NCBI RefSeq assembly: GCF_963666195.1
Contig: NZ_OY762653.1
Span: forward strand, 1,178,001-1,242,000
From: Trichococcus shcherbakoviae
GTDB lineage: Bacteria; Bacillota; Bacilli; Lactobacillales; Aerococcaceae
DNA: 64,000 nucleotides
Direction: 5' to 3'
This document shows positions 5,786-52,802 of the stretch, piece after piece. The notes under the pieces were generated by a model that made no database searches, was not told the origin of the DNA, and saw nothing but the letters and a program-made list of their open reading frames with translations. Both the position numbers and the translations under genes were made by a program. Position 1 is the stretch's first letter. The number at the start of each line of letters is the position of its first letter.

Positions 5786-5920
5786 AGCTCCGGTGGATGG
5801 GGCTTTCCCCGGAGTTGACGCTCTTTTTCTGGCGCTGTTCTCCGGCCAGCGCACCTTCCCCGGAGTTCGAGCTCTCATTCTGTAGTGTTCCTCCGGCCAA
5901 CGAGCGCTTCATCGGAGAAA
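5786..5920. repeat. Tandem hairpin repeat array, three units of 51-52 bp (stem CTCCGG)
   Basis: Left arms CTCCGG start at 5788, 5840 and 5891 (spacing 52 and 51). The matching right arms CCGGAG or TCGGAG start at 5809, 5860 and 5912. Each unit is a hairpin of about 27 bases plus a linker of about 25 bases that tends to contain GAGCTCT/GACGCTCT and ends GTT. The array lies between two convergent genes, 3' of the Maf stop. The same stem recurs in arrays near 14.1 and 19.0 kb. Its function is unknown. Confidence 0.85.
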
Positions 5921-14028: not shown

Positions 14029-14207
14029 GTTCCCGCACGGCCAAGGCCGGGCTGATGCGCATCGGAAAAACGGTGCCTGCTCCGGTGAAGATAGCGTTTC
14101 CCGGAGGAATGTCGGGTCTTGGGCCGGCTGCTCCGGCCAGGCGGTGCCCGCCGGAGTTGCGGGCGAATCTGAAGTCGGTGCTACGGCCAGACTGGCCTTC
14201 ATCGGAG
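14029..14207. repeat. Tandem hairpin repeat array, three to four units of about 51 bp (stem CTCCGG)
   Basis: Left arms CTCCGG start at 14080 and 14131, with a degenerate CTACGG at 14181. Right arms CCGGAG or TCGGAG start near 14102, 14150 and 14202. A further decayed unit (right arm ATCGGA near 14061) precedes them. The unit length is 50-51 bases. The array lies between the 84-residue gene and the LysR gene, 3' of the former, and accounts for most of the 303 bases without a gene here. Confidence 0.8.
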
Positions 14208-14265
14208 CACAATCAAAAAAGATCGGCGCGGCAGCATTTCCATATGCTTCCGCGCCGATCCGATG

Positions 14266-18935: not shown

Positions 18936-19067
18936 TGCTCCGGGGAACGCGGGCTTCGTCGTAGTTCAGCCGGCAATTTGCAGGCGTTCTCCGGTGACGG
19001 CAGCTTCGTCGGAGTTGCGGCTAGGAATCAACGGTGTGCTCCGTTTAGCGCCCGTTTCCCCGGAGCT
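18936..19067. repeat. Tandem hairpin repeat array, three units of 50-51 bp, running into pabC
   Basis: Left arms CTCCGG or CTCCGT start at 18938, 18989 and 19039. The corresponding right arms are a decayed TCGTAG near 18958, TCGGAG near 19009 and CCGGAG at 19060. The third hairpin overlaps the 3' end of pabC: the pabC stop codon (19045-19047) is in its loop and its right arm encodes residues near the C-terminus. It is the same stem family as at 5.8 and 14.1 kb. Confidence 0.82.
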
Positions 19068-40232: not shown

Positions 40233-41345
40233 GTGGAAAAAAAAAAGAGAAAGAAAGTCATCAGCCTCGCACTGATCGGCATCATCATGACGGGGGTGGT
40301 CACGCTCGGCCTGCTCACAAAGAACGGCAAGATCGAACGGGTGGCTTTTGCTGAAGAAACGAACACAGAAGCCAGCCTCGGCTCATTGGATGAACTAATG
40401 GAGGGACTGTCCGACTATCCCGAACTGTACCGAGCGGCCTTTGAAGAGGATGGCATCGATCCGGAAGAGAACATCTTCATCATCCCGGGAATGGATGCCA
40501 CTCTGACGCTCCATCATGAACACGAAGAGGAAGAAATCTGCACAACGATGACGCCGCAAGGGTTGGCCGTCAACAAAGATTACCTGTTCATATCGGCTTA
40601 TTGCCAGACCAAAGAACACAATTCCGTCATCTATGTGCTGGACAAGAAGAGTGGATCCTTCATCAAGGAAATTGTCCTGGACGGCATCCCTCATGCAGGT
40701 GGCCTCGCCTACGACAACAACCATGAGCTGCTCTGGGTCAGCTCGGAAAAAGGCGACACCGCGCAGGTCATCACTCTGTCTTTGAAGGACATTGAAGCCT
40801 ATGACTTCACGGATTCCGCTGAACCGATTGCCTATACGGACAGCATCGAACTGCCTGAAATCAAACGGGCTTCAACCATCACGGTCCACGGCGATGACCT
40901 CTACGTGGCGCATTTCGATGACGAAGAGACGAGTGTCATGCACCGCTACCTGATTTCCACAACAGCAAACGATAAAGGAGAGGAAGTCCATGCGCTCGAT
41001 ACCGGAAAAAGTACGGAAGAAGCTTCTCCTGACGATGTCGATAAGATAGGCAAAGAGATCCAAGGACTGGCTTTTTATCAGGAAAAACTAATGCTGTCAC
41101 GCTCTTCTGGCAGAAAACATGACTCAACCCTACTTTCCTTTGATCGTCTTAAGGAGAATGAGGACTTCACGGATAAAAATGCGAATACCGAAATCACGAT
41201 GCCTTCTTACATGGAACAGGTCGTCGTGGATGGAAAGCACCTCTACATACTCTTCGAATCTGGGGCGTATGCTTATCGCGACCATGGCAACCCGAGCATC
41301 GACCGGGTGCTGCGGGTGGAAGTCGACACATTGTTCGCGGAATGA
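40233..41345 (+). CDS. Exported beta-propeller-like protein
   Basis: The 370-residue protein has a lysine-rich N-terminus and a signal or anchor helix (VISLALIGIIMTGVVTLGLL), then repeats of the YncE/SMP-30-like propeller type, such as QGLAVNKDYLFISAYCQ, HAGGLAYDNNHELLWVSSEK and SYMEQVVVDGKHLYILFESG. It starts with GTG. It follows the ABC permease by about 100 bases, on the same strand, so it may be an outer component or cargo of that system. The exact function is unknown. Confidence 0.78.
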   Translation: MEKKKRKKVISLALIGIIMTGVVTLGLLTKNGKIERVAFAEETNTEASLGSLDELMEGLSDYPELYRAAFEEDGIDPEENIFIIPGMDATLTLHHEHEEEEICTTMTPQGLAVNKDYLFISAYCQTKEHNSVIYVLDKKSGSFIKEIVLDGIPHAGGLAYDNNHELLWVSSEKGDTAQVITLSLKDIEAYDFTDSAEPIAYTDSIELPEIKRASTITVHGDDLYVAHFDDEETSVMHRYLISTTANDKGEEVHALDTGKSTEEASPDDVDKIGKEIQGLAFYQEKLMLSRSSGRKHDSTLLSFDRLKENEDFTDKNANTEITMPSYMEQVVVDGKHLYILFESGAYAYRDHGNPSIDRVLRVEVDTLFAE

Positions 41346-41395
41346 ACAAACAGGAGGTTATCCCGCTTGCGGGACTGCCTCCTGTTTGTTTGAGG
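41346..41395 (+). terminator. Terminator after the propeller gene
   Basis: ACAAACAGGAGG pairs with CCTCCTGTTTGT around an inner CCCGC/GCGGG hairpin, directly after the stop codon. The T run after it is short (GTTTG), so termination may be partial. Confidence 0.75.
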
Positions 41396-41469: not shown

Positions 41470-41602
41470 TTGTCCGATATCCGCATAGAATCGGACAACC
41501 CGAGCGCTAATGCTTCACTCATTGTCCGATATCCGCACAGTATCGGACAACCCGAACGCTAATGCTCTGCTCCTTGTCCGATATCCGCGTAGAATCGGAC
41601 AA
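41470..41602. repeat. Tandem hairpin repeat array, three units of exactly 52 bp (stem TTGTCCGAT)
   Basis: Three hairpins start at 41470, 41522 and 41574. Each has the arms TTGTCCGAT and ATCGGACAA around an 11-base loop of the type ATCCGCATAGA (one or two changes per copy). The 23-base linkers, CCCGAGCGCTAATGCTTCAC and a close copy, are almost identical, so this is not a CRISPR array. It lies between the convergent propeller and LysR genes, 17 bases past the LysR stop. A related array with the same stem is at 51.4 kb. Confidence 0.92.
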
Positions 41603-41618
41603 CCCATGATCCCAAGCT

Positions 41619-42551
41619 TCAGTCCACATGATCAGTCAGCTCGATGCGTTGGTCTCCCTCCAACAATTCCCTAACGATTTCCATGTAACGCTTGGAGATC
41701 GCGCTGAGCGGCCGCACTTTTGAATAGATGAAGCCGATCGTATTTTTTTGATCGACATCCATCGGCACCACGACAATGTGGTCCTGCGTGTTCGATTTCA
41801 GGAGACCTGAACCGACCAAGTAGCCATTCGTCACAGACAACAGATTCAACACGGTCGCGCGGTCGCTTGCGCTGATCCGTTGGACATTCTGGTCGACCTG
41901 GATCGATTCCTCCATCAGCTGTAGCGTGCTGTTTTTGCTTTGATCGAAGGAAATGACGGGGTACGGATGGAGTTCCTCCTGCGTTATTCTCTCCTTCTTC
42001 GCCAACGGATGGAACTCGCTGAGGAATACATGCGGTTGGAACGCGATCAGCGGATCGAATTTCAGGTCGAATGCTTCGAGATACTGTTTGATGACCTTCC
42101 CGTTGAAATCGTTCAGATAGATGAAGCCGACTTCACTGACGGCATCCCGCACGTCCTCCATCACTTTCGAGGTACTCGTCTCCAGGAAACGGAAATTCAG
42201 TGATTCTTCTTTTTTTTCCGAAACCAGTCGGGCAAAGCCTTCCGAGGCAAAATCATAGTGCTGGCTCGAAACCGAAAACAGTCTCCTGTTTTCGGTTGCA
42301 GACAGGTATCGATAATCCAACTGGTCCGCTTGGGCCACGATCTGATCGGCGAACTCCAGGAGCATAGCCCCCTCTTTGGTTATCTCGATACCTTTTTTGG
42401 AACGCTCGAAGATCTGGATGCCATATTCTTCCTCCAGATCTTTGATGCTTGACGACAGACTGGACTGCGCCATATATAATTGCCTTGCGGCCTCCCGAAA
42501 AGTGCCGTATTTCGCCACTGTTATGACATATCGCAATTGCTGCAGATTCAT
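41619..42551 (-). CDS. LysR-family regulator, second MtaR/CpsY-type paralogue
   Basis: The 310-residue protein has a winged helix (LYMAQSSLSSSIKDLEEEYG) and an effector domain with SVSSQHYDFASEGFARLV, the same subfamily as the gene at 13051, which is near the methionine operon. Members regulate methionine, cysteine or capsule genes in streptococci. AGGTGG precedes the ATG. The gene has no obvious promoter of its own. It begins 49 bases after a terminator at the end of a leader that encodes a Met/Cys-rich peptide, so its expression may depend on attenuation. No target gene is evident nearby. Confidence 0.88.
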   Translation of the reverse strand: MNLQQLRYVITVAKYGTFREAARQLYMAQSSLSSSIKDLEEEYGIQIFERSKKGIEITKEGAMLLEFADQIVAQADQLDYRYLSATENRRLFSVSSQHYDFASEGFARLVSEKKEESLNFRFLETSTSKVMEDVRDAVSEVGFIYLNDFNGKVIKQYLEAFDLKFDPLIAFQPHVFLSEFHPLAKKERITQEELHPYPVISFDQSKNSTLQLMEESIQVDQNVQRISASDRATVLNLLSVTNGYLVGSGLLKSNTQDHIVVVPMDVDQKNTIGFIYSKVRPLSAISKRYMEIVRELLEGDQRIELTDHVD

Positions 42552-42599
42552 ATTTTTGCCACCTCACTCTATTTTCCGATGGGTTACCATCAATTCCAC

Positions 42600-42637
42600 A
42601 AAAAAAGTGCATGCGCGTCAACAAAACACACATGCAC
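42600..42637 (-). terminator. Terminator (probable attenuator) in the leader of the LysR gene
   Basis: On the minus strand GTGCATG pairs with CATGCAC, extended by several inner pairs, and is followed by seven T residues. It lies between a short leader with its own promoter and the LysR start codon. An upstream segment (minus strand 42683-42677, TATGCAT) can pair with the left arm and would prevent it from forming. Confidence 0.8.
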
Positions 42638-42702
42638 GAGTATTCATCATCATTTCAGCGCTTCACTTGGATGCGGATGCATAATCTGCCCCCTGATCCC
42701 CT

Positions 42703-42804
42703 TTACAGAGCGACCAAACTCACTCGGTTGTGGAGATCAAAAGATGATAAGAATATTCCTGCATGTTTCTTACATCCGCACATACAACACATCATCTTCT
42801 GCAT
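42703..42804 (-). CDS. Met/Cys-rich leader peptide (33 residues)
   Basis: A 33-codon frame starts ATG at 42804 behind AGGGGAGG with ideal spacing. The first fourteen residues are MQKMMCCMCGCKKH: four Met and five Cys in the first eleven codons. It lies 32 bases after a strong promoter and about 65 bases before a terminator, in front of a MtaR-type LysR gene. Codons 9-11 (Cys-Gly-Cys) can pair with the segment at 42672-42679, which itself can pair with the terminator arm. This is the layout of a leader peptide in transcription attenuation. A tenfold smaller frame (42650-42682) and a short MMMNTRACVFC frame follow; they are less certain. A stand-alone small metal-binding protein is the alternative. 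Confidence 0.65.
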   Translation of the reverse strand: MQKMMCCMCGCKKHAGIFLSSFDLHNRVSLVAL

Positions 42805-42842
42805 GGTTCTGCCTCCCCTTCTTTTCCTCATCGCTTTCTAAT

Positions 42843-42871
42843 AAGATAGCGATTTTCCCGGCGTCTGTCAA
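42843..42871 (-). promoter_or_regulatory. Strong promoter of the LysR leader
   Basis: On the minus strand a perfect TTGACA (42871-42866), a 17-base spacer and TATCTT (42848-42843) lie in the gap after the UvrA-like gene. Transcription would begin near 42836, 32 bases before the leader peptide start. Confidence 0.8.
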
Positions 42872-42891
42872 TCATTTTAACTTGTTTGGCC

Positions 42892-45345
42892 TTAAATGAA
42901 CTTTCCCGTCACCGAATTTTTGTCTTTCCGGATGTCCGATGGCGTTCCTTCCGCAATGATCCTACCGCCGGCATCCCCGCCTCCTGGACCAAGGTCGATG
43001 ATCCAATCAGCCGCTCCGATGATCTGCTGATTGTGTTCCACAACGACCACCGTGCTGCCGGACTCAACCATCCGATCCAACAACTTCAGGAACTTTTCCA
43101 CATCGAGCGGATGCAGACCGGTAGTCGGTTCATCGATCAGATAGAGATTCTTTTTCCCCCGATTTGCGAGGAGTTCCACTGCCAATTTGAGCCGTTGCGC
43201 TTCACCTCCGGACAAAGTCGTAGTTGTCTGGCCGAGCTCGAGGTAGCCGAGACCGACATCCTGCAGAAGATTCAGGATGGCACTGATTTTTGGGGAATCC
43301 GCAAACAGTTCTGCGCCTTCCTCAACCGACAATCCCAGCACTGCGGTGATAGAATGGCCGCGATAGGTCACGGACAGGACCTCGTCCTTGAAGCGTTTGC
43401 CCGAACATACAGGGCAAGGAACTTCCTGATCTTCAAAAAACAACAGGTTATTTGTGACGACCCCCAAGCCTTCACAATTATCGCAGCGTCCCCCTTTCAC
43501 ATTGAAGGAAAAGTGATTGGCGGTTATTCCCTTTTCGATGGCAGTCTGCTGTTGGCCGAAGATTTTCCGGATTTCCGTATAGGCATCCGAATAGGTCGCA
43601 ACATTCGAACGCTTCATCCGGGTGAGGGGTGCCTGTTCCACAATGACGATCCGGTCGAATGAGCCGGTTCCGTTCACCTGATTCGGTTTCTCCGGCTGGT
43701 CCGTATCCCCTTTCGCCAGCACATCGAACACGAGCGTCGATTTTCCGGACCCCGATACGCCGGTGACACAGATGAGACAGCCGATAGGGAAACGGACTGT
43801 CAGATTCCGGAGGTTATGCTTGTCCGCTTGGCTCACCTCGATGAAATCACCGGATCCTTTGCGGAAAAATTTGCGCGGTTCCGACTTGCTGTTCAGGTAG
43901 GCACCGGTGACGGATGTCGCTTGTTCCTTGATTTGCTGCAGCGTTCCCGAGCCGATGACTTCGCCCCCGTATTTCCCGGCTCCCGGACCGATATCAATCA
44001 GGTAGTCCGCAGCCGCCATGACAGCTGTATCATGTTCGATGACGAGGACCGTATTGCCTTTATCCCTCAGCGACCGCAGGACCGTCAGGAGCCCTTCTGT
44101 ATCTTTTGGATGCAGGCTGATTGTCGGTTCATCCAGGATGTAGATGACCCCCGTGAGATCCGAATCAAGGACAGCTGCCAACCGCAGACGTTGCGCTTCA
44201 CCTCCCGACAGCGTCATCGTCTGCCTGTCGAGCGACAGGTAGCCCAATCCCAATTTCAGGATCCGTTTCAGTTTGGTCTTCAAATCTGTGACATAGACAC
44301 CCACCAACAGTTGTTCCGAATGTTTCAGATTTTCTTCGAGCTTGCTGAGCCAATCCATAAGACCAGTCAATGATGAACTGGACAGTTCCGGCAAGCGCGT
44401 TCCTTTCACAGTCACGCTCCTGCTCAGCTCGTTCAGTCGTTCGCCATGGCATTCCGGGCAAATAACCGATTCAAAGTAGGCTTCCTGGAATTTGGAAGCC
44501 CCTTTTTTGTCCGCAATTCTGCGCCAAAGGTTCGGCAGGACCCCTTCATAGCGGCCTTCGGCAATCGTCCGGGGCGCCTGCACATCCGGGAACAACTGAT
44601 GCATCTCTTCACTTTCGGCCCCATGCAGCAACAGCACGCGCTGCGTCGGCGTAAAGTCCTTCACCGGCGTGTTTATTTTTAGCGGGATCCCGTAATGGTC
44701 ACTAGCGGCAACCAGCGACTCCAGCTGGTAATCCCTGTAGCGTTTTTCCCAAAAAACGACCGCTCCCTCTTCAAGCGCCAGTTCTTCACGGAGCACCCGC
44801 TTCTCATCGATCGTCAGCACTTCCCCCATGCCCTGGCAAGTTGCGCAGGCACCTTCTCTGGTGTTGTAGGAAAAATGGGTGCGGGTCAGCTTCTCCATCC
44901 GGTGATTACAGTGAGGACAATACTGGAACACCTTGAGCTCATCGGCGGTCTTTTCGGTTTCCTCGCGGCACTCTGCCGAACTGAATTCCTTCCCGCAAGC
45001 CGGGCAGTCCCTCGTGCTCAATTTCTCAAACAGCATCCGCAGATCGGTATAGATGTCCGTAACCGTTCCCACAGTCGAACGCGGATTTTTATTGTAGGCT
45101 TGCTGCTGGATTTGGATAGCGGGAGACACATTGCGGATCGCATCGATGTTCGGTTTACGGATCCCTTGGTAGCCGATTGCCTCCAGATATTGGCGCTGGC
45201 ATTCCTGATAGAGCACATCCATCGCCAGCGTCGTTTTCCCGGAACCGGATACCCCTGTGAGGACGATCCATTTGTTCCTGGGAAAGTCCACTGTGATGTT
45301 CTTCAGATTGCCTTCCTTGGCGCCGATGATGCTGATATGGTCCAT
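42892..45345 (-). CDS. Class II UvrA-like excinuclease ABC subunit A protein
   Basis: The 817-residue protein has the two ABC ATPase halves of UvrA with zinc-finger cysteines: GVSGSGKTTLAMDVLYQECQ, CPACGKEF and CPHCNHR in the first half; TLSGGEAQRLRLAAVLDSDL; and GVSGSGKSTLVFDVLAK with CDNCEGLGVV and CPVCSGKRF in the second. It is about 120 residues shorter than housekeeping UvrA and lacks the UvrB-binding region, as in class II (UvrA2/DrrC-like) proteins linked to tolerance of DNA-binding drugs. It stands alone on the minus strand. Confidence 0.92.
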   Translation of the reverse strand: MDHISIIGAKEGNLKNITVDFPRNKWIVLTGVSGSGKTTLAMDVLYQECQRQYLEAIGYQGIRKPNIDAIRNVSPAIQIQQQAYNKNPRSTVGTVTDIYTDLRMLFEKLSTRDCPACGKEFSSAECREETEKTADELKVFQYCPHCNHRMEKLTRTHFSYNTREGACATCQGMGEVLTIDEKRVLREELALEEGAVVFWEKRYRDYQLESLVAASDHYGIPLKINTPVKDFTPTQRVLLLHGAESEEMHQLFPDVQAPRTIAEGRYEGVLPNLWRRIADKKGASKFQEAYFESVICPECHGERLNELSRSVTVKGTRLPELSSSSLTGLMDWLSKLEENLKHSEQLLVGVYVTDLKTKLKRILKLGLGYLSLDRQTMTLSGGEAQRLRLAAVLDSDLTGVIYILDEPTISLHPKDTEGLLTVLRSLRDKGNTVLVIEHDTAVMAAADYLIDIGPGAGKYGGEVIGSGTLQQIKEQATSVTGAYLNSKSEPRKFFRKGSGDFIEVSQADKHNLRNLTVRFPIGCLICVTGVSGSGKSTLVFDVLAKGDTDQPEKPNQVNGTGSFDRIVIVEQAPLTRMKRSNVATYSDAYTEIRKIFGQQQTAIEKGITANHFSFNVKGGRCDNCEGLGVVTNNLLFFEDQEVPCPVCSGKRFKDEVLSVTYRGHSITAVLGLSVEEGAELFADSPKISAILNLLQDVGLGYLELGQTTTTLSGGEAQRLKLAVELLANRGKKNLYLIDEPTTGLHPLDVEKFLKLLDRMVESGSTVVVVEHNQQIIGAADWIIDLGPGGGDAGGRIIAEGTPSDIRKDKNSVTGKFI

Positions 45346-45503
45346 GCCTGCTCCCTCGCTTCCTTTTGGTTCTTCTGTTTTAATTATATGCCACTTGCTG
45401 CGTTTTTGTCCTGATTATGCGGGATGGATGCCCGGTTTTCTGTTATACTTCAGAAGAGACAACCGCTACAATCAAGCGGCGAACAGAGTCAGGAGCGAAT
45501 CAG

Positions 45504-46463
45504 ATGAAAAAAACAAACCAAAAGAAACCCATCACTAATAAACGCAATCGCCAGGACAAGGCGATAGGACCCCAAAAAAGCCCGTCCACCAAAGGGGTTA
45601 CGCAATATCCCGTGACCGAACCAAGCGAATTGTTGCCATTTTTGCTGCAGATCCTCAGCAAGCAAAGCCGCAATTCGGTCAAATCGATTCTTACCCGCGG
45701 ACAAGTGACTGTCGACGGCAAGGCCATCACCAAACACAACCACCCCCTGGAACCCGGACAGATTGTCGGCATTTTGGCGAATAAAGAAGCCATCAAAAAA
45801 ACGTCCCTTTCAGGCCTCAAGATCCTGTTTGAAGATGAATCGATCATCGTGATCAATAAGGATGCCGGCCTGTTGTCGATGGCAACGGACGATCCAAAGG
45901 AACCGACCGCTTACCGCCAATTGAGCCAATATGTTAAAGAAGACAATAAAGCGAACCGAATTTTTGTCGTACATCGTCTGGACCGTGATACCTCCGGCGT
46001 CATGCTGTTCGCAAAATCCGAAGAGCTGAAAGAAAAGCTGCAAAATAATTGGAAAGAAATCGTCAAAGAACGCATCTATACCGCTCTGGTCGAGGGCGAA
46101 ATCAAGAAGGATGCAGGCACGATTTCCTCGTGGCTGACCGAGAGCAAAGCCATGAAGGTCCATTCCAGTCCGAAAGACAACGGCGGCCAGCATGCCGTGA
46201 CCCATTACCGCAAGATTCGCGCAAACAAGGAATATTCGCTCTTGGAGGTGCAATTGGAGACCGGCCGGAAGAATCAGATCCGCGTCCAAATGGAATCCTT
46301 GGGCCATCCGGTTGCCGGAGATAAGAAATACGGTGCCTACAGCAATCCGATGAAGCGTTTGGGGCTGCACGCTACCACACTCGCTTTCATCCATCCTGCG
46401 ACCGGTGAGCTCGTCCGCTTCAGCGCGCCGGTTCCGAAAGCTTTCCTGCTGTACTCGAAATGA
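45504..46463 (+). CDS. RluA-family pseudouridine synthase
   Basis: About 319 residues with a basic N-terminal tail (KKTNQKKPITNKRNRQDK), an S4-like RNA-binding segment (about 60-110) and the catalytic domain with the signature HRLDRDTSGVMLFAKS holding the catalytic Asp (about 162). It isomerises uridine in rRNA or tRNA; the exact site cannot be told. The start at 45504 has AGGAG before it. The last motif ETGRKNQIRVQMESLGHPV is intact. The gene is single, with its own terminator. Confidence 0.93.
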   Translation: MKKTNQKKPITNKRNRQDKAIGPQKSPSTKGVTQYPVTEPSELLPFLLQILSKQSRNSVKSILTRGQVTVDGKAITKHNHPLEPGQIVGILANKEAIKKTSLSGLKILFEDESIIVINKDAGLLSMATDDPKEPTAYRQLSQYVKEDNKANRIFVVHRLDRDTSGVMLFAKSEELKEKLQNNWKEIVKERIYTALVEGEIKKDAGTISSWLTESKAMKVHSSPKDNGGQHAVTHYRKIRANKEYSLLEVQLETGRKNQIRVQMESLGHPVAGDKKYGAYSNPMKRLGLHATTLAFIHPATGELVRFSAPVPKAFLLYSK

Positions 46464-46465
46464 CA

Positions 46466-46507
46466 AAAAACATGATTCTCCTTTGCGGGGAATCATGTTT
46501 TTGTTTT
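46466..46507 (+). terminator. Terminator after the pseudouridine synthase gene
   Basis: AAAAACATGATTCTCC pairs with GGGGAATCATGTTTTT around TTTGC and runs into T-rich sequence. The A run on its left makes it usable on both strands. Confidence 0.9.
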
Positions 46508-46570
46508 TAATGCAGGATTTTGAGGGACCGGAATAGCCCGCCAAAAGCGACTGGCGGGCTAAAATACAGC

Positions 46571-47095
46571 TTATCCGCGGTAGCGCAGCGCCAATCCTTT
46601 CAGGAAATTCCGTGCATAGCGGTCGCCGCAAGGCTTGTAATTGCGGTGCCCTTCTTTGCGCAGGACCGCGCTCAGTTCGCTTTTTGACACGGTGACTCCA
46701 GCCGATTCCAGGATTTCAAGCATGTCTTCGTTTGTCAAAGTCAGCGCGATCTTGACTTTCTTCAGCAGCAGATTGTTGACGTTCCCGTTGTTCAGCACAA
46801 ATTCCGGCTTTAGTTCCGTTTCGCCGGGCTTCGCTTGCGCTTTGCCGCGTTGGGAAGTGATTAGTCCGTTCAAGAACGATTCCAGTGTCGCATTGTCGCA
46901 AGCCAGTTGATCGTCTTCCGATGGGGCTGTAGCCCCGGCAGTATCCGTTGCTTCATCTTTTTTCGATTTCAGCAACATCTTTTGTACTGCTTCCTTCGTC
47001 AATTCAAGTCCGCCCAAGCGGAACACTTCCACCATATCTGCATCCTTGATGTCCAGCGCATAGCGCAAGCGGATCAATATATCATTGTTGTCCAT
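46571..47095 (-). CDS. DUF1456 family protein
   Basis: About 174 residues made of two copies of the DUF1456 motif: MDNNDILIRLRYALDIKDAD with MVEVFRLGGLELTKEAVQKM in the first and LLLKKVKIALTLTNEDMLEI in the second. A basic tail follows (GHRNYKPCGDRYARNFLKGL). The family (YehS-like) is cytosolic and of unknown function. The start at 47095 matches the family. Confidence 0.9.
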   Translation of the reverse strand: MDNNDILIRLRYALDIKDADMVEVFRLGGLELTKEAVQKMLLKSKKDEATDTAGATAPSEDDQLACDNATLESFLNGLITSQRGKAQAKPGETELKPEFVLNNGNVNNLLLKKVKIALTLTNEDMLEILESAGVTVSKSELSAVLRKEGHRNYKPCGDRYARNFLKGLALRYRG

Positions 47096-47220
47096 ATTAT
47101 GCCTCCAAATTTTCCTTTTCAATTATCCTTTTCCAGTATACCTTGTTGTCTGATGGAATGCATGCCTTATTCGTTCCTCATTTTTTTAATTTCCCCTCTT
47201 CACTTCTCACGCAAATATGT

Positions 47221-47226
47221 TATAAT
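47221..47226 (+). promoter_or_regulatory. Possible -10 element for tRNA-Val
   Basis: TATAAT lies 34 bases before the tRNA. A clear -35 is not seen; CTTCAC is at the usual distance. Confidence 0.5.
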
Positions 47227-47259
47227 CAAATATACGAGCAGGTGATTCATCTGTTTAAC

Positions 47260-47331
47260 GGTTCCTTAGCTCAGCGGGAGAGCACTACCTTGACATGGTA
47301 GGGGTCGCTGGTTCAATCCCAGTAGGGACCA
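47260..47331 (+). tRNA. tRNA-Val (anticodon GAC)
   Basis: The sequence folds as a cloverleaf: acceptor GGTTCCT/AGGGACC, D arm GCTC/GAGC, anticodon arm CTACC-TTGACAT-GGTAG with anticodon GAC, variable region GGGTC, T arm GCTGG-TTCAATC-CCAGT with one wobble pair. The CCA end is not encoded (ATCA follows). It reads GUC, and GUU by wobble. It is alone, followed at once by a terminator. Confidence 0.96.
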
Positions 47332-47352
47332 TCAAGTTTCAGCACAAAACAG

Positions 47353-47402
47353 TAAAGAGGCACAATCGAGAAATTCGATCGTGCCTCTTTTTTTATTTTT
47401 TC
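47353..47402 (+). terminator. Terminator after tRNA-Val, probably bidirectional
   Basis: AAAGAGGCAC and GTGCCTCTTT form a stem with an inner ATCGA/TCGAT hairpin, followed by a long T-rich run. It lies 22 bases past the tRNA and 14 bases before the end of the convergent lipoprotein gene. Confidence 0.92.
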
Positions 47403-47415
47403 AATTGCCTGTCCA

Positions 47416-48627
47416 TCATTCTGCCGCTTCCGGTGCCTCGCTCATGGTTGCATCCAAAAGGTATTCGCCTTTGCTGCTGTTCCCCTCAGTGGAAAAACGC
47501 GCATCCAAATCATTGAAATGCCACCATTCCGAAGCCAGTGGAGTAAGACCGGCGTCCGTGCAGTAGCGCTGCAGGAGGATGGCTGCCTCATTCATCGTAT
47601 CTGCCAAGGTGGCTTGGAGCCAGGCGGTCGGGGAACTGGATTTGACCGGTCCGGTGAATGTAGCCGAGGCCATGCTCAATTCATGGATAGTGGTCGGCAT
47701 CGTGTACTCCGTGTAGCCCGTTATAGCGGTCGCAGCATAGTCGCCGATGACGATTTCCTGCTGTTCGGTTATTTTCGCCAATGTGACATCGATGGCATAG
47801 CCCATTTGGTGATTCGAAACGCTTGTCGCAATGAACCAGTTCGTGTTCCAAGGGTAAGTATTGATCCCCGCCATCACTTCCGAATCGGCCGCAGCCAAGG
47901 TTGTCAAAGCATCCACTGTCAGCTTTTGGGCAAAAAATGGACGGTACCCCTCATAGATGACCAAAGTATTCCCCTCCTCCAAAGCTGCTTGCTGCGCCAA
48001 ATGGATTTTCTTCGACATACTGTAAAGCACCGGCACGATATCGGACACTTTTCCCAGCCGCATATTGTATGCTTTCCCGTCGTAAAGCGCCTCCCCGGTT
48101 ATGCCTGGGATCGTTTTTCCGGAAGAAACGAACTTGGATGCGTACGTGTTGGTATTGTCGTAGATGATGGAGGGGATTACATCCGGAAGATTGATGAAAC
48201 AATAAAGATGCTGCACCCATCCCGATTCAGTAGCGGTCCGGACATACCACCAATCGCCAACCTCCTCCAGCACCTCAAAAGCGGTGCCCGCCTCCAATTC
48301 CGAAATCGTTTCGGATCCGGCATCCGCAGTCGCCTTCAGATCCATCCGGACTGAAGCATAGCCTGTCGCCCCGTTGACAGGAAGCTCCAGATCCCCTTCA
48401 TACGTCAACGGTTCCGGATTTTCCGGCTGGACTACAGCTGTTTCCTCTTCATTCGATGTTTCACTCGAGGCCGTCTCTGCTGAATCCACCGCTTCGACAG
48501 CCGAACTTGTCGTAGCGCTCTCCGACTCCTCTGTTTCCGTCTGTTCATCCGAGCCGGAGCAAGCGGACAGCACCGCACCCGTCAGGATGCCGATGAAAGC
48601 GCAGCGCCAATTTTTGTTGATTCTCAT
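47416..48627 (-). CDS. Lipoprotein with SH3 domain and VanX-type D-Ala-D-Ala dipeptidase domain
   Basis: The 403-residue precursor has a lipobox (GAVLSACSG, Cys near 23), an acidic Ser/Glu/Thr linker (25-75), an SH3-like domain (about 80-145, with GDWWYVRTATESGWVQHLY) and a peptidase M15 domain. The zinc-site motifs are SNHQMGYAIDVTL (about 270) and SEWWHFN near residue 367, as in the VanX/DdpX branch, which cuts D-Ala-D-Ala; YEGYRPFFAQ is the other conserved block. Lying outside the membrane, it more likely trims peptidoglycan peptides than confers glycopeptide resistance. GGAGG precedes the ATG. Confidence 0.9.
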   Translation of the reverse strand: MRINKNWRCAFIGILTGAVLSACSGSDEQTETEESESATTSSAVEAVDSAETASSETSNEEETAVVQPENPEPLTYEGDLELPVNGATGYASVRMDLKATADAGSETISELEAGTAFEVLEEVGDWWYVRTATESGWVQHLYCFINLPDVIPSIIYDNTNTYASKFVSSGKTIPGITGEALYDGKAYNMRLGKVSDIVPVLYSMSKKIHLAQQAALEEGNTLVIYEGYRPFFAQKLTVDALTTLAAADSEVMAGINTYPWNTNWFIATSVSNHQMGYAIDVTLAKITEQQEIVIGDYAATAITGYTEYTMPTTIHELSMASATFTGPVKSSSPTAWLQATLADTMNEAAILLQRYCTDAGLTPLASEWWHFNDLDARFSTEGNSSKGEYLLDATMSEAPEAAE

Positions 48628-48644
48628 TTATATTCAGACCTCCA

Positions 48645-49358
48645 TTACGCGGATACGATCATTTTTACTAGTTCCAACAGCAATAGATGGAACGGATAGA
48701 AAGCATAGAAGCCCCATTTCATCACATTGGATTTCTTCCCTTGACGGCCTTTGTAGAACAACAGCAGCGGCACAGCCAGAAAAATGCCGATTTGGTAGGA
48801 TTGCGTCCAACCGATTTCACTGATCGAAGGGATGATGTGGAACAGAATCCCTATGACCGCAAAGCTCAGCAGCTGTTTTTCGGTTTGTCCCCTGAACAAT
48901 CCGAAAAACAGAATCCACAAGACCGCTACATAATTCCAATCAGCCGGTACCGCCAGCAGACCGCAGGCCAAAACGATTGTTGCTTTTAACAGAAGCGACC
49001 AGTCCTCTCGTTTGGCCGCCGCCAATGCCACCAATCCCAACGCCAATCCCCAGATGACGCTCGTTGCCTGCCACCACGGGAGGCCGAAATACCAGACATA
49101 CGGAAAATGCGAAACGGCGGCAAACATCACTAACCTCACGATATATTTTTTCAGATTGGATGTGTAATGATAGCCTTCCGCAATCATATAGCACATGATC
49201 GGGGCGGCAATCCGCCCCGCTATCCGCAGCGCCACACCTTCGAGGCTGTCCTGCGGCACAAATACCGCAAAGATATGATCGAAAAACATTGCGAATATGG
49301 CAAGGTTCTTCAATGTATAGGATGATAGGTCTTTTTGAATCTCGCTAATGCCTTGCAT
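48645..49358 (-). CDS. TraX family membrane protein
   Basis: About 237 residues with seven to eight helices. LKNLAIFAMFFDHIFAVFVP and RIAAPIMCYMIAEGYHYTSN match the TraX family, named after a pilin acetyltransferase of F plasmids but common as a chromosomal acyltransferase-like protein in Firmicutes. GFYAFYPFHLLLLELVK is the conserved end. The substrate is unknown. It lies 17 bases before the VanX-like lipoprotein gene on the same strand, so both may act on the envelope. The start at 49358 has GAGGAG upstream. Confidence 0.87.
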   Translation of the reverse strand: MQGISEIQKDLSSYTLKNLAIFAMFFDHIFAVFVPQDSLEGVALRIAGRIAAPIMCYMIAEGYHYTSNLKKYIVRLVMFAAVSHFPYVWYFGLPWWQATSVIWGLALGLVALAAAKREDWSLLLKATIVLACGLLAVPADWNYVAVLWILFFGLFRGQTEKQLLSFAVIGILFHIIPSISEIGWTQSYQIGIFLAVPLLLFYKGRQGKKSNVMKWGFYAFYPFHLLLLELVKMIVSA

Positions 49359-49662
49359 CGGAGTGCTCCTCACTGTACTTGGTTTCGCAGCGTTTACTTT
49401 AAGCTGATCGACAGGCCTGTGTGCCTGTCCTTTCCCACAGTATATGCTTCCGGGAGTCCGCCAATCCCCGAAAAAAAGGAAGATATTTGCGGGAAAACTT
49501 ACGTAATCCGAAATTGGATGCGTTCACATTAGCAAAATGCATGCAAGAAGCCATTCCGGACCAAATTGGATCCCTCATTTTATGTCGGATTGGACGGTTT
49601 CATAGCCCTTTTCATTTGCTAAACTTATCAGCAATATACGAAATGACAAGGAGGACTTCCTG
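49359..49662. other. Intergenic region between divergent genes, with a repeated AAATTGGAT
   Basis: This 304-base gap holds the promoters of traX and of the aminotransferase gene. The nine-mer AAATTGGAT occurs at 49511 and 49563, exactly 52 bases apart, but no clear hairpin surrounds the first copy. It could be a decayed array of the 52-base family or a pair of operator sites. A dyad GCTAAACTTATCAGC lies near 49617. No riboswitch was recognised. Nothing else of note was seen. Confidence 0.4.
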
Positions 49663-50814
49663 ATGAGATACAAACCGAATTACGCCCCGGGTCCGACCGA
49701 GGTACGCGAAAATGTGCGTTTGGCCCGCGCAAAAAGAACCAACAACAGCGACTTTGACAAAACATTCGTCCGCTATTACCGTGAGGTCAGCCAAAAAACG
49801 GGGCAAGTCATGGGTACCACAAATGAAGTCCTGTTGCTTGCCGGCGAAGGGATACTGGCTCTTGAGGCAGCTTGTGCGAGTCTGACAGAACCCGGCGATC
49901 GCGTGCTCGTACTGGACAACGGCATCTATGGCGAAGGCTTCAAGGATTTCGTCAGCATCTATGGCGGCGTGCCGGTCGTCCTGAGTTTCGACCACCACAG
50001 CGGCATCCCTACCGAAGCGGTACGCGCCTATCTGGAAAAGGATTCCGACTTCAAATATGCCACCCTGGTCCATTGCGACACACCGACATCGGTACTGAAC
50101 AACGTGGCTGAGTTATGTCCTTTACTGAAGGAATATGGCATTCTGACGGTGGTAGATTCCGTCGCCGGCATGGTCGGTGAGCCGATAAACGTCGACGCAA
50201 ACCGGATCGACATTTGCTGCGGCGGAACACAAAAAGCCATTTCGGCGCCGGTCGGACTGGCCATCGTCTCGGTCAGCGCAGACGCCCAAAAAGCGATGGA
50301 CAATCGCAAAACGCCTATCGCTTCCTTCTATGCTAATCTGCAGGTCTTCAAAGGCTACGCGGAAAAAGAATACTTGCCTTACACGACTTCTGCGGGCGAT
50401 GTCGCAGCGCTCGATGCCGCTTTGGACAACATCCTGGAGGAAGGCATCGAGGCGGTCTACGCACGCCATGATAGGATTGCTACCGCAGTGCGCGAAGCCG
50501 CCCAAGCGTACGGCTTGGCCCTGTTCCTGGATTCCGACCGTTCCAATACCGTCACCGCCATCCGGATACCGGAAGAGATTGGTGCTTTGCGCCTGCAGGA
50601 GCACCTCAGCGAAAACTACGATTTGTTGGTCGCAACTTCATTGGCACAATATGCAGATGTGATCCTGCGCATCGGCCATATGGGCGAAAATGCCTTCATC
50701 GACAAATTGGTTTATGTTTTGGCCATCGTAGACAACGGTCTCCGCGATTTGGGCTTCGTCGGAAAAGGCGACTTGGCCCAGCTATTCATCGGAAGCTATA
50801 AAGAAAACAATTAG
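49663..50814 (+). CDS. Class V PLP-dependent aminotransferase (alanine-glyoxylate/PucG-like)
   Basis: The 383-residue protein belongs to the class V aminotransferases: NYAPGPTEVRENVRLA at the start, HCDTPTSVLNNV, LTVVDSVAGMVGEPI with the PLP Asp, and the PLP lysine in CCGGTQKAISAPVGLA (about 192). Relatives include alanine-glyoxylate, serine-pyruvate and ureidoglycine aminotransferases. No purine degradation gene is near. An ECF vitamin transporter subunit begins 11 bases after its stop, so the enzyme probably works on something linked to that substrate. AAGGAGG precedes the ATG. Confidence 0.88.
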   Translation: MRYKPNYAPGPTEVRENVRLARAKRTNNSDFDKTFVRYYREVSQKTGQVMGTTNEVLLLAGEGILALEAACASLTEPGDRVLVLDNGIYGEGFKDFVSIYGGVPVVLSFDHHSGIPTEAVRAYLEKDSDFKYATLVHCDTPTSVLNNVAELCPLLKEYGILTVVDSVAGMVGEPINVDANRIDICCGGTQKAISAPVGLAIVSVSADAQKAMDNRKTPIASFYANLQVFKGYAEKEYLPYTTSAGDVAALDAALDNILEEGIEAVYARHDRIATAVREAAQAYGLALFLDSDRSNTVTAIRIPEEIGALRLQEHLSENYDLLVATSLAQYADVILRIGHMGENAFIDKLVYVLAIVDNGLRDLGFVGKGDLAQLFIGSYKENN

Positions 50815-50825
50815 GAGGTTTCACT

Positions 50826-51362
50826 ATGCAAAAAGCACAAGGTTATTCAAACACACGCACTTATGATTTAGTTCTGACGGCGATCCTGATTGCGCTCGTA
50901 TTCGTCGCTACAGTCTTCCTGAACATCAAATTGCCGATCGGGGCAAATGGTGGCTTGATCCACCTCGGCACTGCGATGCTCTTCCTCGCTTCCATCCTGT
51001 TCGGGCCGAAAAAAGGTGCCATCGCCGGAGCGGTCGGCATGGCCATCTTCGATCTCATGGCTGGCTGGGTTCTGTGGGCCCCCTTCACGTTGGTTACCCG
51101 CGGCTTGCAAGGCTATCTGGTCGGTAAATTGGCCTGGTCGAAAGGCCGCCAAGGGGACAGCTTTGCGATGAACCTTTTGGCCACGCTGCTTTCGGTTCCC
51201 ATCATGCTGGTCGGTTATTATCTGTGCGAATGGATCCTTTACGGCAATGCCATCACACCGTTCGCTTCGATTCCCGGAAACCTCGTCCAGAACGCGGTCG
51301 GAATTGCCATTTCCTTGCCGCTGTCGGCAATTTTGAAAAAGATGAATATCGCTGGAAGATAA
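50826..51362 (+). CDS. ECF transporter S component, substrate unknown
   Basis: The 178-residue protein has six helices and the pattern of the ECF riboflavin-type/PdxU2-like S components: LIALVFVATVFLNIKLPIG, GGLIHLGTAMLFLASILFGP and FDLMAGWVLWAPFTLVTRG. S components capture a vitamin and dock to the shared EcfAAT module, which is not in this window. Coupling to a PLP-dependent aminotransferase gene suggests vitamin B6 or an amino vitamin precursor, but this is only an inference. AGGAGG precedes the ATG, and the gene ends in a terminator. Confidence 0.87.
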   Translation: MQKAQGYSNTRTYDLVLTAILIALVFVATVFLNIKLPIGANGGLIHLGTAMLFLASILFGPKKGAIAGAVGMAIFDLMAGWVLWAPFTLVTRGLQGYLVGKLAWSKGRQGDSFAMNLLATLLSVPIMLVGYYLCEWILYGNAITPFASIPGNLVQNAVGIAISLPLSAILKKMNIAGR

Positions 51363-51370
51363 TGAATTGA

Positions 51371-51417
51371 AAAGGAAGGCTCTGTCTCGGGATGAGACAG
51401 AGCCTTCCTTTTTTGTA
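51371..51417 (+). terminator. Terminator of the aminotransferase-ECF operon
   Basis: AAGGAAGGCTCTGTCT pairs with AGACAGAGCCTTCCTT around a seven-base loop and is followed by six T residues, ten bases after the stop. A residues to the left allow some bidirectional use. Confidence 0.94.
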
Positions 51418-51426
51418 ATAGTCCTC

Positions 51427-51510
51427 TGGATGTCCGATTCTTCCGCATTATCGGACATCCAGCAACCAAGACATGCTCTGCTTGTACGATTCTTCGGGGA
51501 TATCCAACAT
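51427..51510. repeat. Hairpin repeat array of the 52-bp family, one intact and one decayed unit
   Basis: An intact hairpin TGGATGTCCGAT/ATCGGACATCCA surrounds the 11-base loop TCTTCCGCATT (51427-51461). Fifty-two bases after TGTCCGAT (51431) a decayed copy TGTACGAT (51483) follows. The linker ends ATGCTCTGCT, the same as a linker in the 41.5 kb array, and the loop shares the core CCGCAT. So both arrays descend from one repeat. It lies between the ECF terminator and the end of the VOC gene. Confidence 0.82.
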
Positions 51511-51613
51511 CATTTGATATCCCTGTGCCTGCAACACGAAAAGACTGTCCATAAAGAGGCAGCCTTCCGTTTTTATTATGCTATTTGATAATCCTCAACC
51601 TGTTCCGAGGCTG

Positions 51614-52009
51614 CTATTTTGCATTCAGGTCCGGTTGATGGATCCCGAACAGATTCCCTTCCGTATCGAAATAATACCCCTGCCAAGCCATCCCGGTCAA
51701 CGCATTCTTGGGCATCGCGACTTTGCCGCCATGCTCCAGGATCAGCGCTTCGGTCGCATCGTAATCTTCGGTCCCCATCGTGCACACAAAAGCGTTCAAC
51801 CCTTGATTTACCTCAGGCGGAGCACTTTGGCGTTGCATCAAAGCGCCGTTGATGCCCGGTTCGCTCGTGTCCCCTGTGATCGCCCCGAAATAGGGTGTAC
51901 CCGTAAAAGCGGTCCAATCTTCGAATGTCCACCCGAAAACATCTCCGTAGAAAAGCTTAGCCCGTTCCATATCGTCCACATGGATTTCAAAATGAATGAT
52001 TCTTCCCAT
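51614..52009 (-). CDS. VOC-family (glyoxalase/bleomycin resistance-like) protein
   Basis: The 131-residue protein is a single VOC unit pair: GRIIHFEIHVDDMERAKLFY with GDVFGWTFEDW, and AWQGYYFDTEGNLFGIHQ. His and Glu at the ends of the motifs are the usual metal ligands. The substrate is unknown. AGGAG precedes the ATG. It follows another, dissimilar VOC gene by 86 bases on the same strand. Confidence 0.87.
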   Translation of the reverse strand: MGRIIHFEIHVDDMERAKLFYGDVFGWTFEDWTAFTGTPYFGAITGDTSEPGINGALMQRQSAPPEVNQGLNAFVCTMGTEDYDATEALILEHGGKVAMPKNALTGMAWQGYYFDTEGNLFGIHQPDLNAK

Positions 52010-52095
52010 GATTGATCTCCTATTTTTCGCAAAACAGTTGCTGCGGATGGCTCATGTAATATGCAATTGGAAACGGAATTCCAGCAAAAGGAAAG

Positions 52096-52467
52096 TTATC
52101 TGTGCTGATCGACGAGGATCGGATTGCCGTCGGGATCCTCAATGATGAAACTGGCCGGCCCTTCTGATTCCGGATCGGCTTCCGAAACAAAAGCGATGCC
52201 TTTTTCCCGCAATTCTTCCTGTAACTGGCGGACATCCTTGAACGGATTCACTTCTTCCGCATTGCTGTTCCAACCGGGATTGAACGTCAGCATGTTTTTC
52301 TCGAACATGCCCTGGAATAGCCCGATGATGCAGTCCTCGTTCTTCATGATCAGCCAGTTCTGATCGATGTCCCCGCCGAATGTGCTGAAGCCCAATTTTT
52401 CGTAAAATGCCTTTGATGCATGTATGTCCTTGACCGTCAGACTGAGGGAAAATGCTCCGATGCCCAT
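52096..52467 (-). CDS. VOC-family protein
   Basis: The 123-residue protein has the pattern FSLSLTVKDIHASKAFYEKL near the start and GPASFIIEDPDGNPILVDQH at the end, typical of glyoxalase/bleomycin-resistance-like VOC proteins. The catalytic role is unproven. CGGAG precedes the ATG. Between 52468 and 52668, upstream of it, I see only promoter-like AT-rich DNA. Confidence 0.87.
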   Translation of the reverse strand: MGIGAFSLSLTVKDIHASKAFYEKLGFSTFGGDIDQNWLIMKNEDCIIGLFQGMFEKNMLTFNPGWNSNAEEVNPFKDVRQLQEELREKGIAFVSEADPESEGPASFIIEDPDGNPILVDQHR

Positions 52468-52668
52468 GCTTATTCTCCGTTCTATTTGGAATTTTGTCGC
52501 TTCTGATCCGGATGATACTTAAGAATGTTCCTTCATAAACCATTATAATTTCGTCGTATGCGAAAAGCTAATTTTAGCGGATCATCTGAATTTTTCAGGA
52601 TCGAAGTTGTGCGTGGGAATCGAGTAACCTCATTTGATTGTAGTCGATTGCGCCGACCGGATACCCGG

Positions 52669-52802
52669 ATTGCCGAATATAGTACCTGTATTCGGCAATT
52701 TTGCCTTTCGCCAGATTCAATTTGTCGAATGTTTTTGAACATTCGGCAATTCTGCTCTTCGTTGGGGTCAATTTGTCGAATGTTTTTGTAGCATTCGGCA
52801 AT
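52669..52802. repeat. Tandem hairpin repeat array, three units of 51-52 bp (stem TTGCCGAAT)
   Basis: Left arms TTGCCGAAT/TTGTCGAAT start at 52670, 52722 and 52773. Right arms ATTCGGCAAT start at 52690, 52741 and 52793. Loops are 10-11 bases (GTTTTTGTAGC type in two copies). Linkers contain CTTCG and end GTCAA or TTCAA. The period and loop size match the arrays at 41.5 and 51.4 kb although the stem differs. The array is 3' of the CLC gene, which ends at 52942. Confidence 0.9.

What the first reader, a model, noticed from the sequence alone, without database searches (positions are those of the whole stretch)
41470..52802. A family of intergenic tandem hairpin repeats with a fixed 50-52 bp period and variable stem sequence
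Six arrays in 64 kb (5786-5920, 14029-14207, 18936-19067, 41470-41602, 51427-51510, 52669-52802) share one design: units of 50-52 bases, each a hairpin of about 27-31 bases plus a linker of about 21-25 bases, in two to four copies. Three stem types occur (CTCCGG, TTGTCCGAT, TTGCCGAAT), while period and layout stay constant. Every array lies near the 3' end of a minus-strand gene. A constant unit length with a changing stem suggests pressure on geometry (RNA structure, protein spacing on DNA at about five helical turns, or a copying mechanism) rather than on sequence. I know of no named repeat class with this set of features.
Basis: seen in the sequence. Interest (0 to 1): 0.78.

Follow-up and report, generated by a model that had tools for sequence, protein, structure and literature searches.

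The report
Hairpin arrays keyed to DNA helix
Rows of short mirror-image DNA repeats sit between genes of a Trichococcus bacterium at a spacing close to a whole number of turns of the DNA helix, even where the repeat sequence differs, which suggests that geometry rather than sequence is what is kept.

Summary
The genome is a Trichococcus. All six arrays exist. The main family (TTGTCCGAT, 11-base loop, ATCGGACAA, 23-base linker) has a rigid 52-bp period genome-wide; unrelated stem families in the same genome run at about 50-52 bp with other hairpin/linker splits. At orthologous sites copy number changes by whole units, and one site can hold different stem families in different species. Arms are conserved as sequence with little covariation, orientation to genes is random, and in codirectional gaps arrays lie beyond the terminator where one is seen. 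This favours a DNA over an RNA role.

In relatives, tandem hairpin arrays have periods near 31, 40-41, 51-52 and 61-62 bp, i.e. 3-6 turns of about 10.4 bp, and the period follows the genome more than the stem. Shuffled DNA and hairpin pairs with unlike arms show no such pattern. I conclude that palindrome centres are kept on one helix face. The evidence rests on few lineages and has off-phase exceptions; the responsible machine and the function are inferred. Nearest known kind: REP (palindromic unit) clusters; the terminal tag and transposase link of REPs were not found.

The parts
41470..41602 (+). F1 array: hairpins 41470-41498, 41522-41550, 41574-41602 (TTGTCCGAT-N11-ATCGGACAA), two 23-base linkers, period 52; between the ends of convergent genes 40233-41345(+) and 41619-42518(-)
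   Evidence: sequence; exact hits; gene calls
41349..41391 (.). terminator-like hairpin of the + strand gene, just before the array slot
   Evidence: read
5788..5917 (.). F4 (CTCCGG) array: hairpins 5788-5814, 5840-5865, 5891-5917; convergent gap 5703/5933
14080..14207 (.). F4 array: hairpins 14080-14106, 14131-14156, 14181-14207; codirectional gap, beyond a terminator-like hairpin at 14220-14259 for minus-strand transcription; one unit in G061, three in G068 and G071
18938..19065 (.). F4 array: hairpins 18938-18964, 18989-19014, 19039-19065; the stop codon of the called minus-strand gene 19045-19863 lies in the last hairpin
51430..51510 (.). F1-type hairpin 51430-51458 (ATGTCCGAT..ATCGGACAT) and a decayed unit 51482-51510, 52 bp on; convergent gap 51362/51614
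52670..52801 (.). F2 array: hairpins 52670-52698 (TTGCCGAAT), 52722-52749 and 52773-52801 (TTGTCGAAT..ATTCGGCAA), centres 51.5 apart; codirectional gap; the ilyis orthologue has ATTCGACAA right arms

Best explanation
These are dispersed, tandemly repeated DNA palindromes whose centres are kept in phase with the DNA helix, so that the palindromes of an array face the same side of the double helix. SHOWN in Trichococcus: a period of 52 bp (50-52 over families) that does not depend on stem sequence or on the hairpin/linker split; copy-number change by whole units; placement between genes, mostly convergent and rarely divergent, and beyond the terminator in codirectional gaps where a terminator is seen; conservation of the F1 arms as sequence. 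SUPPORTED by comparison of few lineages: in other Bacilli the same kind of array has periods near 31, 40-41, 51-52 or 61-62 bp, i.e. 3-6 turns of about 10.4 bp. INFERRED: a palindrome- or structure-binding protein assembly (a nucleoid or topology factor, or the complex that copies the units) contacts neighbouring palindromes on one DNA face; new units arise by duplicating one palindrome plus adjoining DNA, and mainly in-phase products are made or kept; the arrays act as DNA-level docking or boundary sites between transcription units.
For: Own-genome F1 hairpins, spacing not conditioned: of 37 neighbour distances under 400 bp 31 are 52, three 104, one 156, one 51, one 155. Loop 11 in 327 of 327 exact-arm copies with 3-24 allowed (orthologues included). 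Different splits, one sum: TTGTCCGAT 29+23, TTGTCGAA 28+23 (23-base linker in 40 of 46 genus hits with 10-40 allowed), CCCGCCAA 23+29 (29-base linker in 10 of 11 own hits), CTCCGG 26/27 plus mostly 24/25. Linkers are private to arrays: 18.6 of 23 shared by neighbours, 8.5 of 23 between arrays. Fresh linkers containing unique terminator DNA again give 52 here. Convergent 62, codirectional 33, divergent 2 of 97 arrays against 16, 65 and 18% of intergenic bases; orientation 45 same, 48 opposite. Terminator only before codirectional arrays in 14, on both sides in 2, only after in 0, undetected in 17. Same core palindrome with a 23-base linker (Trichococcus; Mesobacillus) or a 33-base linker (genus g80, 11 of 11 pairs at 62). 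Agnostic arrays: G330 52, G418 52, G201 61-62, G036 31/40/41/52/62 over many stems. 38 of 47 genome-stem units within 1.2 bp of n x 10.4, expected 23%; P=0.0001 with genomes as blocks, 0.0001 with the three 52-bp genomes pooled and 0.0014 for units with two or more pairs. Controls: 2 arm-sharing pairs in shuffled DNA; 4484 hairpin pairs without shared arms R=0.032.
Against: Few independent lineages; TTGTCCGAT(A) arrays at 52 in three of them may share descent. Off-phase units exist: 9 of 47, including CTCCGG at 50.5, which is 1.5 bp short of five turns, 40-bp arrays, 43-47 bp spacings in G036, and 37-38 bp start spacings in a composite CTCCGG region. G405 has three TTGTCCGAT pairs at 44 bp, off phase, though its units lack the matching right arm. 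In G036 the 52 and both 62 entries rest on single pairs, and one of the 62s reads as twice 31. SX930 has 22- and 24-base linkers at one site. Indel deficit not significant for the window CTCCGG/F2 arrays (6 gaps per 174 substitutions against 171 per 2707). F1 linkers keep a weak genus-wide consensus, so part of the 52 may be inherited. Hairpin-free tandem repeats are too few for a firm control (27; R 0.29 at 10.4, P 0.1; R 0.35 at 10, P 0.03), and unlike-arm pairs, though R is tiny, give P 0.012. No binding data and no protein candidate.
Confidence: 0.45

Rival explanations
1. Mobile REP-like palindromes: an unknown (or lost) transposase or recombinase copies a palindrome plus a fixed length of neighbouring DNA. 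The spacing is the ruler of that copying complex and the arrays have no function for the host.
For: Dispersed family restricted to the genus within its taxonomic family apart from one palindromic hit; same slots filled by different families and variable copy number; new linkers taken from unique flank.
Against: No partner gene found: Y1 transposases occur in 12 of 13 Trichococcus genomes but in none for G063, which has arrays, and F1 or F3 hairpins lie beside none of 30 Y1 loci (F4 in 3, F2 in 2). No clean empty-site pair showed a defined insertion. Only this one transposase family was searched.
Confidence: 0.25
2. Neutral inheritance: one ancestral 52-bp unit spread and grew by unequal crossing-over or slippage, which always moves whole units; the shared period is descent only.
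For: Weak genus-wide linker consensus CCAGAGCGCAAATG..GG in F1; whole-unit copy changes; several stems are one or two changes from each other.
Against: F3 and F4 stems and splits are unrelated to F1 yet have nearly the same sum; fresh linkers from unique DNA return to 52 in this genome; F1 spacing shows far fewer indels than its substitutions predict (about 16 expected, 2 seen; my arithmetic); descent does not predict 31/41/52/62.
Confidence: 0.2
3. RNA elements: hairpins in 3' untranslated regions that stop exonucleases or attenuate read-through.
For: Place near 3' ends of genes (median 67 bp from the nearest stop); inverted arms; the authors of PMC3733652 think most REPs are transcribed. In convergent gaps a terminator is seen on one side only in 31 of 62, so one gene may read into the array.
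Against: No orientation preference (palindromes fold either way, so this is weak); codirectional arrays lie after the terminator when one is seen; mismatches in the F1 stem are 30 G-T against 22 C-A, and covariation is above shuffle only at one pair; an RNA linker needs neither exact length nor helical phase.
Confidence: 0.08
4. CRISPR-like arrays (29-bp repeat, 23-bp spacer).
For: Repeat and spacer sizes look similar; CRISPR counts are reported for the genus (passage of PMC6950789).
Against: Linkers of one array resemble each other, 18.6 of 23; dozens of dispersed short arrays in one genome. Cas genes beside arrays were not searched.
Confidence: 0.01

Closest known systems
REP / palindromic-unit clusters (BIMEs)
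   Same: Palindromes of 20-40 bp in high copy, intergenic, mostly between convergent or codirectional genes, several types per genome, often in tandem with flanking DNA (abstract and passages of PMC3733652)
   Different: There the tandem units carry flanking DNA 'of variable length' and dimers are mostly 20-100 bp apart; here the period is fixed near whole helical turns. No terminal tag and no transposase link found
Minisatellites / VNTRs
   Same: Head-to-tail units with copy number varying between strains or species
   Different: Each unit holds a palindrome, the arms are dispersed genome-wide families, and the period is shared by unrelated arrays
CRISPR arrays
   Same: Regular 29+23 layout
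   Different: Linkers are near-repeats of each other, not unique spacers
Plasmid centromere-type tandem sites such as sopC (recalled, no call)
   Same: Head-to-tail units of about 43 bp, each with an inverted repeat bound by a protein (from memory)
   Different: Here dozens of dispersed chromosomal arrays with several stem families and no known binding protein

Membership tests
REP (GTAG/CGTC super-families) | short palindrome in high copy, intergenic, between convergent or codirectional genes | tested here: met
   65 exact F1 copies; 62 convergent, 33 codirectional, 2 divergent of 97
REP (GTAG/CGTC super-families) | GTAG or CGTC tag at one end of the palindrome | tested here: not met
   Profile of 394 F1 units: beside the stem the best position is 31 (C, 1.21 bits), the others at most 0.65 bits, and no GTAG or CGTC. 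F2-F4 not profiled
REP (GTAG/CGTC super-families) | associated tyrosine transposase (RAYT, Y1) | tested here: not met
   Y1 genes in 12 of 13 genomes but none in G063, which has arrays; none of 30 Y1 loci carries F1 or F3 hairpins. A lost transposase is not excluded
CRISPR | unique spacers between identical repeats | tested here: not met
   neighbouring linkers share 18.6 of 23 bases, n=171 pairs
CRISPR | adjacent cas genes | not tested
   no search made
RNA families in Rfam 15 | match at gathering score | tested here: not met
   only a tRNA in the window
Helically phased palindrome array (proposed) | period near n x 10.4 bp irrespective of stem | tested here: met
   38 of 47 units within 1.2 bp; block randomisation P 0.0001-0.0014; exceptions listed under evidence against
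Plasmid centromere-type iterons | cognate binding protein | not testable with these tools
   no binding data

The most novel reading that the evidence does not exclude
Tandem palindrome arrays in Bacilli obey one rule: the distance between palindrome centres is a whole number of helical turns (3, 4, 5 or 6), the number is largely a property of the genome, and stem sequence is nearly free. A so far unknown machine reads or builds palindromes by their helical face, independent of their sequence.
Probability: 0.4. Interest if true: 0.88.

Novelty: new variant of a known kind. Interest (0 to 1): 0.7.

Why it matters
If the period is set by helical turns and not by sequence, scattered intergenic hairpin arrays that share no sequence become one class recognised by geometry. 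That would point to an unknown DNA-architecture or copying factor acting between genes, mostly convergent ones, and it gives a direct test: change the spacing by half a turn and by a whole turn. It also gives the role of repeated palindromes a new handle, since phase separates DNA-level from RNA-level explanations.

Tried and rejected
RNA families: Rfam at gathering score gave only a tRNA. Transposase partner: Y1_Tnp was searched in the genus and no link to the F1 or F3 hairpins was seen; other transposase families were not searched. RNA covariation: weak signals only, at F1 pair 6:24 (0.924 against 0.879 shuffled), CTCCGG pair 6 in 26-bp hairpins (0.69 against 0.55, sd 0.05) and pair 10 in 27-bp hairpins (0.67 against 0.52, sd 0.06); the other CTCCGG pairs lay within about 1.5 sd of shuffle or below it. 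'Sedimentibacter sp. SX930' looked like a distant carrier; its loci match Trichococcus, one at 100% over 3 kb, so I treat it as Trichococcus. One search counted 88 stretches and listed 80; of the nine listed loci outside Trichococcus and SX930, one (L134, Mesobacillus subterraneus) is a true array and eight are not (single inverted repeats or isolated matches). A clean empty site showing the first insertion was not found: zero-copy alleles also lack flanking DNA or hold another family. A 94-bp repeat in G035 first looked like nine turns, but by my reading its hairpin centres are about 47 apart, so I did not use it. Six of the 14 genomes matched have a single hit each, at 44, 55, 55, 62, 63 and 65 bp; I take these as chance and did not count them for or against. 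Indel deficit in the window CTCCGG/F2 arrays: not significant.

Papers: PMC3733652, PMC6950789, PMC11984121, PMC2884548 and PMC4060949 were seen as found passages only; the rest only in search listings. Searches on Trichococcus with repeats or CRISPR, REP with Firmicutes, and helical phasing of tandem palindromes listed no paper that, from its title or the start of its abstract, describes this; lists were cut (for example 15 of 87, 10 of 34) and the library is open-access only.
Full report
IDENTITY. The window is position 1,178,001-1,242,000 of a 2,925,055-bp single-contig genome. A scan of GTDB genomes for ATCGGACAA-N23-TTGTCCGAT counted 88 stretches and listed 80: Trichococcus species (patagoniensis, pasteurii, flocculiformis, ilyis, alkaliphilus, paludicola, strain K1Tr, a MAG), a record labelled Sedimentibacter sp. 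SX930, and nine loci in other genera. SX930 DNA is Trichococcus-like, one locus at 100% over 3 kb, and its contig 1 has the length of contig 1 of G068, which the tool calls the same species as the window. In the family, 12 of 76 genomes have tandem hits: 11 of the 13 Trichococcus genomes, and one single palindromic hit with a 25-base linker; all listed Trichococcus hits (the list is cut) have a 23-base linker although 20-26 was allowed.

THE OBSERVATION. All six arrays are present. An agnostic scan over 464 kb of this genome has one strong spike in hairpin-to-hairpin distance, at 52 bp, and a second at 104. The main family F1 is a 9-11-9 palindrome: with exact arms the loop is 11 bases in 327 of 327 copies, loop length being free to vary from 3 to 24 (copies include orthologues). 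In this genome, with no condition on spacing, the 65 exact copies give 37 neighbour distances under 400 bp: 31 of 52, 3 of 104, 1 of 156, 1 of 51, 1 of 155. Further families run at nearly the same sum with another split: TTGTCGAA 28+23 (40 of 46 genus hits), CCCGCCAA 23+29 (10 of 11 own hits), CTCCGG 26/27 plus mostly 24/25. CTCCGG is looser: 42 of 44 centre distances under 75 bp are 49-51.5, and a composite region has starts 37-38 bp apart.

WHERE. Using a simple hexamer gene caller of my own, 97 F1 arrays (orthologues included; most loci were brought in by the N23 pattern) lie 62 in convergent, 33 in codirectional and 2 in divergent gaps, while those gaps hold 16, 65 and 18% of intergenic bases in the own-genome sample. 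The loop-defined orientation is 45 same and 48 opposite to the gene with the nearest 3' end. In codirectional gaps a terminator-like hairpin stands only between the upstream stop and the array in 14, on both sides in 2, only beyond the array in 0, undetected in 17; in convergent gaps on one side in 31, on both in 5, on none in 26.

EVOLUTION. At orthologous sites copy number differs by whole units: for example ilyis 2, flocculiformis 4, SX930 7, patagoniensis 9 at one site, and K1Tr 3 units in 193 bp against 4 units in 245 bp here at another; lengths are not exact multiples at every site because flanks differ too. In the slot of the named array this genome has three F1 hairpins, G068 (SX930) and G062 (flocculiformis) one, G067 (patagoniensis) one and G063 (ilyis) three CTCCGG hairpins, and six other genomes none (names by contig match). 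Slot 51362-51614 likewise holds F1 here and CTCCGG in ilyis; the L099 slot holds 13 F1 units in patagoniensis and a CTCCGG hairpin in K1Tr and ilyis. Linkers are private to arrays: 18.6 of 23 bases shared by neighbours, 8.5 of 23 between arrays (this set was restricted to runs at 52). In the array at 2,286,560 the newest linkers contain the left arm of the adjoining terminator, which flocculiformis carries once, and the unit is again 52 in this genome; SX930 has 24- and 22-base linkers there beside 23. So a unit can be made from a palindrome plus unrelated flank and still end at, or within a base of, 52. The F1 stem is conserved as sequence; only pair 6:24 covaries above shuffle, and in L097 three of the four hairpins printed carry the swap in both arms and one in the left arm only.

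SPACING CONSTRAINT. In non-array intergenic DNA of the window region there are 171 gap events per 2707 substitutions against five relatives; in the window CTCCGG/F2 arrays 6 per 174, not a significant deficit. Own F1 neighbours differ by 5.46 of 23 linker and 2.33 of 11 loop bases, so about 16 indels would be expected in 32 adjacent pairs, while 2 deviating distances are seen. This is my arithmetic; it treats pairs as independent and takes substitutions from runs at 52.

OTHER BACILLI. A pattern allowing 37-67 bp spacing, run on 398 Bacilli genomes, matched 14. G330 and G171 (one genus) and G418 (another family) have many pairs; of those listed 10 of 10, 8 of 9 and 9 of 10 are at 52 (the others 51 and 54). 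Three genomes of genus g80 have 11 of 11 pairs at 62 with the same GTCCGAT-N11-ATCGGAC core, i.e. the linker is 33 instead of 23. G405 has three pairs at 44, off phase, without the matching right arm; six genomes have one hit each at 44-65. L134, Mesobacillus subterraneus, has seven copies at exactly 52. Agnostic scans of fetched stretches, with no stem or period given, show arrays at G330 52 (7 of 8), G418 52 (7 of 8, one 51), G201 61-62 (6 of 6), and in G036, a genus of the same family as Trichococcus, 41 (11) and 40 (4) of 24, with 31 (3), 62 (2), 52, 43, 44 and 24, over many unrelated stems; the 52 and the two 62s rest on single pairs and one 62 reads as twice 31. G330, G418, G201 and G036 were sampled more deeply because arrays had been seen there. 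In these four genomes 45 arrays outside called genes lie 16 convergent, 26 codirectional, 3 divergent. In 47 genome-stem units 38 lie within 1.2 bp of n x 10.4 (expected 23%). Randomising a common offset per genome gives P=0.0001; pooling the three 52-bp genomes as one block also gives 0.0001, and 0.0014 for units with at least two pairs (3 blocks). With one entry per block and period the statistic is u=3.09 (n=18) or 2.80 (n=8), and among the turn lengths tried on the last set 10.4 is best. Controls: shuffled DNA yields 2 arm-sharing pairs in all; 4484 neighbouring hairpin pairs without shared arms give R=0.032, small though P is 0.012. Tandem repeats without hairpins are too few for a firm control (27; R 0.29, P 0.1 at 10.4; R 0.35, P 0.03 at 10). 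Of 20 survey genomes (one stretch each, four of them under 20 kb) 17 showed no arm-sharing array and three showed one pair each, at 72, 35 and 30.5. Of the same-family samples G035 gave one at 42 and G052, G059 and the Trichococcus G065 none. So array-rich genomes are a minority.

READING. The simplest account of one sum with many stems, of 52 against 62 with the same core palindrome, and of several helical classes in one genome, is that palindrome centres must lie on the same face of B-DNA. RNA hairpins or simple inheritance do not predict that. Whether phase is imposed when units are copied or by later selection is open; the fresh linkers suit either. The function as docking or boundary site between transcription units is inference from place and phase alone. 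REP clusters are the nearest known kind; size, place and tandem habit agree, but the tag and transposase tests were not met, so I do not file these as REPs.

Noticed in passing
own genome 2,552-2,925 kb plus 0-333 kb: No exact F1 hairpin (65) and no CTCCGG tandem pair (66) lies in this ~712-kb stretch on the terminus side (dnaA at 1,647 kb; GC skew). In G071 the listed 100 of 103 CTCCGG pairs leave an 896-kb gap (480-1,376 kb) away from dnaA at 2,399 kb. One F3 pair at 86 kb lies inside the own-genome gap. The gap is not centred on the point opposite dnaA.
   Followed up: partly
L031 (own genome about 1,053.4-1,055.4 kb): A roughly 1.8-kb element with a transposase-like gene and GGGGCTGTCTCAAAA ends interrupts a linker of an F1 array.
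   Followed up: partly
L064, L081, L086, L101 and others (MUZD01 records): The public record 'Sedimentibacter sp. SX930' appears to be a Trichococcus.
   Followed up: partly
L040 9861-10654, 16942-17238, 18592-19190: Dense CTCCGG hairpins with composite start spacings (50, 50, 37, 52 ...); own-genome pairs nearby at 2,450 kb recur about every 189 bp.
   Followed up: no
CCCGCCAA (F3) linkers: Many F3 linkers hold a second small palindrome like TGTCCGCGGACA, resembling the F1 arm (read).
   Followed up: no
window 35585-35772: A 96-bp tandem repeat, two copies 75% alike, within a called gene.
   Followed up: no
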